A stretch of 44,066 bases of DNA from positions 1-44,066 of the forward strand of contig JAAYBL010000071.1 in assembly GCA_012718945.1 (NCBI GenBank). Reading direction: 5' to 3'. Made by a program: the position numbers and the translations under genes. A model generated the notes under the pieces. The model worked only from the letters and a program-made list of their open reading frames with translations, was not told the DNA's origin and ran no database searches. Shown here one piece after another: positions 28,724 to 28,892 of this stretch (positions within the stretch are counted from its first letter, which is position 1; every line of letters starts with the position of its first letter). Source of the DNA: Bacteroidales bacterium (GTDB taxonomy: Bacteria > Bacteroidota > Bacteroidia > Bacteroidales > UBA1402).

Positions 28724-28731
28724 TATCTTTG
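28724..28731 (+). promoter_or_regulatory. -7 box TATCTTTG upstream of the small lipopeptide ORF
   Basis: CTTG-N19-TATCTTTG arrangement matches the Bacteroidetes TTTG/TAnnTTTG promoter spacing. Confidence 0.6.
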
Positions 28732-28758
28732 CGTGTCAAAACGGAACAGAAAGACTTC

Positions 28759-28842
28759 ATGAAACATCGTTTGCTCATCGCTGGATTGCTGCTACTTGCC
28801 GTTTTGGTACTGGCTGCCTGCAAATCGCCGTGCGGTTGTTAG
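28759..28842 (+). CDS. Putative 27-aa lipopeptide/mini-lipoprotein (not in the ORF track)
   Basis: ATG...TAG reads [27 protein letters not shown]: basic N-terminus, hydrophobic core, lipobox LAAC, then CKSPCGC. A promoter box lies 28 nt upstream of the ATG. Confidence 0.55.
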
Positions 28843-28892
28843 GACGTGCCTAAAAAAAACGCGCTTTTTTTCGCCGTTTGCCACAAAATGTG

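What the first reader, a model, noticed from the sequence alone, without database searches (positions are those of the whole stretch)
28724..28871. Unlisted 27-codon Cys-rich lipopeptide gene with its own promoter, just upstream of gapA
ATG 28759 to TAG 28842 encodes [27 protein letters not shown]. The sequence has a textbook lipoprotein signal (positive N-region, hydrophobic core, LAAC lipobox). Signal peptidase II processing would leave only CKSPCGC, a heptapeptide with three cysteines including the lipidated one. A CTTG-N19-TATCTTTG promoter lies just upstream. An A7-CGCGC-T7 element (about 28853-28871) sits between it and the gapA promoter. The ORF is below the track's size cut-off. It could be an envelope metal/thiol-reactive lipopeptide, a signalling lipopeptide, or a decayed or leader ORF.
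Basis: partly seen in the sequence, partly recalled or inferred. Interest (0 to 1): 0.62.

Follow-up and report, generated by a model that had tools for sequence, protein, structure and literature searches.

The report
Conserved tiny cysteine-tailed lipoprotein beside gapA
A 27-codon stretch that annotation skips is a real gene, kept across several families of gut, oral and insect-gut Bacteroidales, and it should yield a membrane-anchored seven-residue peptide ending in Cys-X-Cys, usually made next to the glycolysis gene gapA; its job is still unknown.

Summary
ATG 28759 to TAG 28842 encodes [27 protein letters not shown] behind a good Bacteroidetes promoter (-33 CTTG 28701-28704, -7 TATCTTTG 28724-28731).

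It is a real, conserved gene. I collected 53 distinct copies: window family, Tannerellaceae (Parabacteroides, Tannerella), Barnesiella, Coprobacter, Dysgonomonadaceae, Azobacteroides, other uncultured Bacteroidales families, and one from another order. All keep a lipobox and, with two spacing variants, the tail C-x-x-P-C-x-C. In copies found without an amino-acid pattern, tail synonymous sites are saturated (pS 0.87) while replacements are rare (pN 0.13); the 21 nt after the stop give 0.72/0.70. In 46 of 53, gapA starts 48-188 nt downstream; in many Tannerellaceae and Barnesiella-type loci the only promoter found lies before the lipopeptide.

It is not simply a gapA leader: several single copies lie away from gapA (after mltG, after tRNA-Arg, between murA and rng), no RNA fold is conserved, and gapA persists where the ORF is lost or broken.

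Best reading: a micro-lipoprotein whose mature part is a lipidated heptapeptide with a C-terminal dithiol, held at the periplasmic side and often expressed with gapA. Thiol/metal chemistry is inferred, not shown. No Pfam, NCBIfam or literature match was found.

The parts
28701..28704 (+). -33-like element CTTG of the lipopeptide promoter
   Evidence: read; 19 nt before the -7 box; consensus as in PMC7366714
28724..28731 (+). -7 box TATCTTTG (TAnnTTTG)
   Evidence: TAnnTTTG lies within 100 nt upstream of the ATG in 39 of 53 homologues versus 2.9 expected from shuffles
28759..28842 (+). 27-codon lipopeptide [30 protein letters not shown]
   Evidence: homologues
28759..28818 (+). predicted signal peptide, residues 1-20, with lipobox L-A-A-C at the junction (-3 is L/F/M/C/V and -1 is S/A/G in every homologue)
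28819..28839 (+). predicted mature heptapeptide CKSPCGC; Cys21, Pro24, Cys25, Cys27 invariant in the alignment
   Evidence: tail pS 0.87, pN 0.13 in the pattern-free set; window/G010 pair 4 synonymous, 0 replacement changes
28852..28871 (+). A8-CGCGC-T7 element between the ORF and the gapA promoter; not shown to be functional
   Evidence: similar A-run/T-run with other loops in G010 and in G011, which lacks the ORF
28893..28900 (+). gapA -7 box TACTTTTG
   Evidence: kept in G010 and G011
28937..29938 (+). gapA, type I glyceraldehyde-3-phosphate dehydrogenase; usual downstream neighbour
   Evidence: TIGR01534 437.5 bits, cut-off 367.2

Best explanation
This is an unannotated, conserved gene for a micro-lipoprotein. 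Shown: the reading frame, promoter, lipobox and the tail C-x-x-P-C-x-C are conserved under strong coding selection, and the gene usually sits directly before gapA, in many lineages with one promoter found for both. Inferred: Sec exports the 27-mer, Lgt and signal peptidase II lipidate and cut it, leaving a lipidated heptapeptide (CKSPCGC here, CATPCGC in most). Having no acidic export signal, it faces the periplasm, in the outer or inner membrane. Since Cys1 carries the lipid, the working part would be the C-terminal Cys-Gly-Cys, a membrane-tethered dithiol/disulfide that exchanges disulfides or binds a soft metal. Coupling to gapA would supply it at high, growth-linked levels.
For: Coding constraint: (tail pS 0.873, pN 0.125; after the stop 0.716, 0.700; mean entropy at codon positions 1, 2, 3 of 0.43, 0.20, 1.41 bits). 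Conservation: 53 distinct copies, alignment A3 invariant M1, C21, P24, C25, C27. Specificity: among 118 stretches matching the CATPCGC-stop pattern in genome contigs, only 40 have a signal peptide, all of them Bacteroidales, and 35 of those have gapA directly downstream. Promoters: 39/53 versus 2.9 expected. Separate gene: single copies away from gapA. Signal: net charge of the first six residues is positive in 49 of 53, -1 always S/A/G, no acidic residue after the Cys in any member, unlike the Bacteroidetes surface-export signal (PMC5080379). Chemistry: Cys-Gly-Cys has a reduction potential of -167 mV, near PDI's -180 mV (Woycechowsky and Raines 2003 as cited in PMC4316792).
Against: No expression, lipidation or phenotype data could be consulted. 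Residue 26 is N or H in four copies of the window's family, so the CGC-specific redox argument is not universal, though C-x-C is. The gene is lost in the close relative G011 (gapA 97% identical) and broken in G117, so it is dispensable in places. Most of the 53 copies were found with a CATPCGC pattern, which inflates apparent tail identity; only the 18 pattern-free copies are unbiased. A heptapeptide could act without its thiols.
Confidence: 0.5

Rival explanations
1. Leader peptide acting in cis: translation or export of the Cys-tailed nascent peptide senses a metal, redox state or cysteine supply and tunes gapA, as CutF does for cutO.
For: 46 of 53 copies have gapA 48-188 nt downstream; in many Tannerellaceae/Barnesiella-type loci the spacer is short and no TAnnTTTG lies between the ORF and gapA, so it is probably the first cistron. 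CATPC is a CxxxC motif, as in CutF (PMC9973294). The link holds with two diverged gapA types.
Against: Single copies unlinked from gapA in five genomes and 1.2 kb away beyond opposite-strand ORFs in L075. No conserved fold over ORF plus spacer in 19 sequences. gapA keeps its promoter and 5' UTR where the ORF is a pseudogene, G117, or gone, G011. In the window gapA has its own promoter. The lipobox is kept throughout.
Confidence: 0.15
2. Bulk or structural envelope lipopeptide: an abundant tiny lipoprotein that dimerises or cross-links through its tail cysteines and alters membrane properties, without redox or metal catalysis.
For: Association with gapA, normally a strongly expressed gene, suggests high output; the lipid anchor is conserved.
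Against: The tail is far more constrained than a mere anchor would need: Pro24, Cys25 and Cys27 are invariant.
Confidence: 0.2
3. The released signal peptide, not the tail, is the product (a pheromone-like signal).
For: The mature part is only seven residues; some Gram-positive pheromones derive from lipoprotein signal peptides (from memory).
Against: The signal region diverges freely (pS 0.73, pN 0.56) while the tail is fixed.
Confidence: 0.04
4. Chance or decayed ORF.
For: Very short; absent from most Bacteroidales genomes sampled.
Against: Synonymous-only tail variation, conserved lipobox, promoter and position.
Confidence: 0.01

Closest known systems
LptM (YifL), lipoprotein promoting oxidative maturation of LptD (PMC10567701)
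   Same: small lipoprotein; best curated-model hit, to the signal peptide only (17.3 bits)
   Different: below the 27.7-bit cut-off; no tail match; LptM is not reported to act through a Cys-X-Cys tail
CutF / CruR (DUF2946) exported nascent-chain copper sensors (PMC9973294)
   Same: short exported ORF with a CxxxC motif upstream of a target gene
   Different: no proline-rich stalling C-terminus, no conserved spacer stem-loop, several copies unlinked from the target, lipobox instead of an ordinary Sec signal
Cys-Gly-Cys peptide mimics of protein disulfide isomerase (Woycechowsky and Raines 2003, cited in PMC4316792)
   Same: C-terminal Cys-Gly-Cys dithiol
   Different: synthetic or embedded peptides, not a lipidated natural product; four window-family members have N or H between the cysteines
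Tiny Bacteroidales lipoproteins with a CPAYG core (L028, L031, L272, L228)
   Same: lipobox, about 40 aa, a second Cys soon after the lipid Cys; three near gapA
   Different: different tail (C-P-A-Y-G plus extension), mostly elsewhere; common origin not tested

Membership tests
bacterial lipoprotein (Lgt/LspA substrate) | positive n-region, hydrophobic core, lipobox ending in Cys | tested here: met
   window L-A-A-C; 53 homologues keep -1 S/A/G and -3 L/F/M/C/V
bacterial lipoprotein (Lgt/LspA substrate) | actual lipidation and signal peptidase II cleavage | not testable with these tools
   needs lipid labelling and mass spectrometry
surface-exposed Bacteroidetes lipoprotein | acidic export signal after Cys+1 (K-(D/E)2, Q-A-(D/E)2, SDDDD) | tested here: not met
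   no D or E after the Cys in any of 53 members; signal from PMC5080379
LptM (NF047847) | score above the curated cut-off | tested here: not met
   17.3 bits against 27.7; 3 of 40 members hit weakly
CutF/CruR-type leader | linked upstream of the regulated gene in all members | tested here: not met
   unlinked single copies
CutF/CruR-type leader | conserved stem-loop before the downstream gene | tested here: not met
   alifold 0.0 for the spacer, -0.68 for ORF plus spacer, 19 sequences; no Rfam match in the window region
CutF/CruR-type leader | CxxxC motif in an exported peptide | tested here: met
   C-x-x-x-C spans the lipid Cys and Cys25 in the standard spacing
thiol-disulfide/PDI-like peptide | Cys-X-Cys or Cys-X-X-Cys dithiol | tested here: met
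   C-x-C in all 53 members
thiol-disulfide/PDI-like peptide | redox or isomerase activity | not testable with these tools
   needs synthetic peptide assays

The most novel reading that the evidence does not exclude
A new class of natural catalyst or metal ligand: a lipidated heptapeptide, perhaps the smallest mature lipoprotein family described, using a C-terminal Cys-Gly-Cys as a membrane-tethered disulfide isomerase or soft-metal trap in the Bacteroidales envelope, with output tied to glycolysis through gapA.
Probability: 0.3. Interest if true: 0.82.

Novelty: new variant of a known kind. Interest (0 to 1): 0.62.

Why it matters
It adds a conserved gene, below usual size cut-offs, to gut, oral and insect-gut Bacteroidales including Parabacteroides and Tannerella. 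The mature product would be only seven residues with a fixed Cys-Pro-Cys-Cys pattern, so its structure-function can be tested with synthetic peptides. Its position makes it the probable first cistron of the gapA mRNA in several families, which anyone interpreting gapA expression or 5' UTRs there should know.

Tried and rejected
Profile search with six seed sequences over the order mostly returned ordinary lipoprotein signal peptides; only short-frame hits with the full tail were kept. Pattern hits outside Bacteroidales (78 of 118) were rejected: no signal peptide and no gapA. The TGTTCAACACCTTGCGACTGT match elsewhere in the window's genome lacks a signal peptide. Pfam, NCBIfam and Rfam gave no family. 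A plasmid tblastn with the window 27-mer found nothing. No paper contains CATPCGC; only open-licence full text was searched. Consensus fold over ORF plus spacer: none. A sigma-70 scan was uninformative because Bacteroidetes promoters differ. The gapA tree needs at least 14-15 changes of the presence label, and window-genus gapA belongs to a different gapA lineage from the rest of its family, so gapA phylogeny cannot time the origin of the lipopeptide. Structure prediction was not attempted for 27 residues.

Full report
Check of the observation. The ORF 28759-28842, its -33/-7 promoter (28701-28704, 28724-28731) and the A/T element (A8-CGCGC-T7, 28852-28871) are all present. Neighbours are guaA on the opposite strand and gapA downstream, both above their NCBIfam cut-offs. 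The peptide matches no Pfam or NCBIfam model above cut-off, and there is one copy in the genome.

Relatives in the family. A search of 13 genomes of the family and inspection of the gapA loci found the same kind of ORF directly upstream of gapA in G010 (MNRKYLFFFFFLLVVVLVMTSCKSPCGC), G006, G007, G008 (tail CATPCNCG) and G005 (CATPCHCG). It is missing in G011, G003 and G004, and upstream of the intact gapA copy of G001. These were found by similarity or position, without demanding the tail.

Relatives beyond. Searches of 393 genomes of the order found it in eight of about 120 families. A phylum scan of 297 genomes added one convincing member from another order of the class (G438, MKRNYLLLIILWCIWALVASCKAPCGCP). 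No Bacteroides, Prevotella or Porphyromonas record appeared among the named pattern hits.

Coding selection. In the 18 standard-length copies found without an amino-acid pattern, tail third positions vary almost freely (mean entropy 1.41 bits) while first and second positions of the three cysteines and the proline never vary; pS is 0.873 and pN 0.125, against 0.716 and 0.700 just after the stop. The window/G010 pair differs by four synonymous and no replacement changes in the tail. The signal part diverges (pN 0.56 over all copies) but keeps charge, hydrophobicity and lipobox, as signal peptides do.

Architecture. TAnnTTTG lies within 100 nt upstream of the ATG in 39 of 53 copies (2.9 expected); this is the sigma-ABfr -7 box (PMC7366714). 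In 46 copies gapA begins 48-188 nt after the stop. Many Tannerellaceae have 48-57 nt and no second -7 box, so the lipopeptide is probably the first cistron of the gapA mRNA (inferred). The window family and Dysgonomonadaceae have a separate gapA promoter.

Not just a leader. Single copies lie away from gapA in G042 (after tRNA-Arg), G438 (between murA and rng), L098 and L140 (after a gene that looks like mltG) and L063. In G117 the ORF is broken but its promoter, the gapA 5' UTR and gapA remain; in G011 the ORF is gone. No conserved RNA structure was found. A cis effect in some lineages cannot be excluded, but a product acting in trans explains more.

Likely mechanism (inferred). Lipidation of Cys21 would leave Lys-Ser-Pro-Cys-Gly-Cys (usually Ala-Thr-Pro-Cys-Gly-Cys) on a membrane anchor. 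No member has the acidic surface-export signal of Bacteroidetes (PMC5080379), so the periplasmic side is expected. Cys-Gly-Cys has a reduction potential near that of PDI (PMC4316792), which suggests disulfide exchange; soft-metal binding is equally compatible. The N/H variants in the window's family fit C-x-C rather than strictly CGC.

Known kinds. LptM and CutF/CruR were considered and fail defining features (see membership test).

Verdict. A real, unannotated, conserved micro-lipoprotein gene (about 0.95 for that claim); envelope thiol or metal function about 0.5 as the best single explanation; cis control of gapA about 0.15.

Noticed in passing
L196 (G117), just upstream of gapA: Natural pseudogene of the lipopeptide: promoter and gapA 5' UTR kept, signal region deleted and frame broken, remnant of the CATPC codons visible; intact copies exist in relatives.
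   Followed up: yes
L221 (G162), 139 nt upstream of gapA: MKKVIIIALTIAAALLATSCKSGCGCPGGAGYGHVIDTEISIEANA, a longer lipoprotein with CKSGCGC at the mature N-terminus in the same position; possible divergent relative.
   Followed up: partly
L028, L031, L272, L273, L276; near gapA in L173, L227, L228: A separate group of about 40-residue Bacteroidales lipoproteins with a short C-x(n)-CPAY core and no Pfam/NCBIfam family.
   Followed up: partly
48-60 nt before gapA in Tannerellaceae, Barnesiella and Coprobacter loci (e.g. L051, L022, L025): Conserved gapA 5' UTR sequence TAAACCC-n-AAAAGTTTTATTACA-ATG, also kept in the pseudogene locus; possible translation-enhancer element.
   Followed up: no
window gapA 28937-29938; gapA tree: gapA of the window genus groups away from gapA of another genus of its family and near G041/G076; G001 and G701 carry two gapA genes, suggesting gapA replacement or exchange.
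   Followed up: partly
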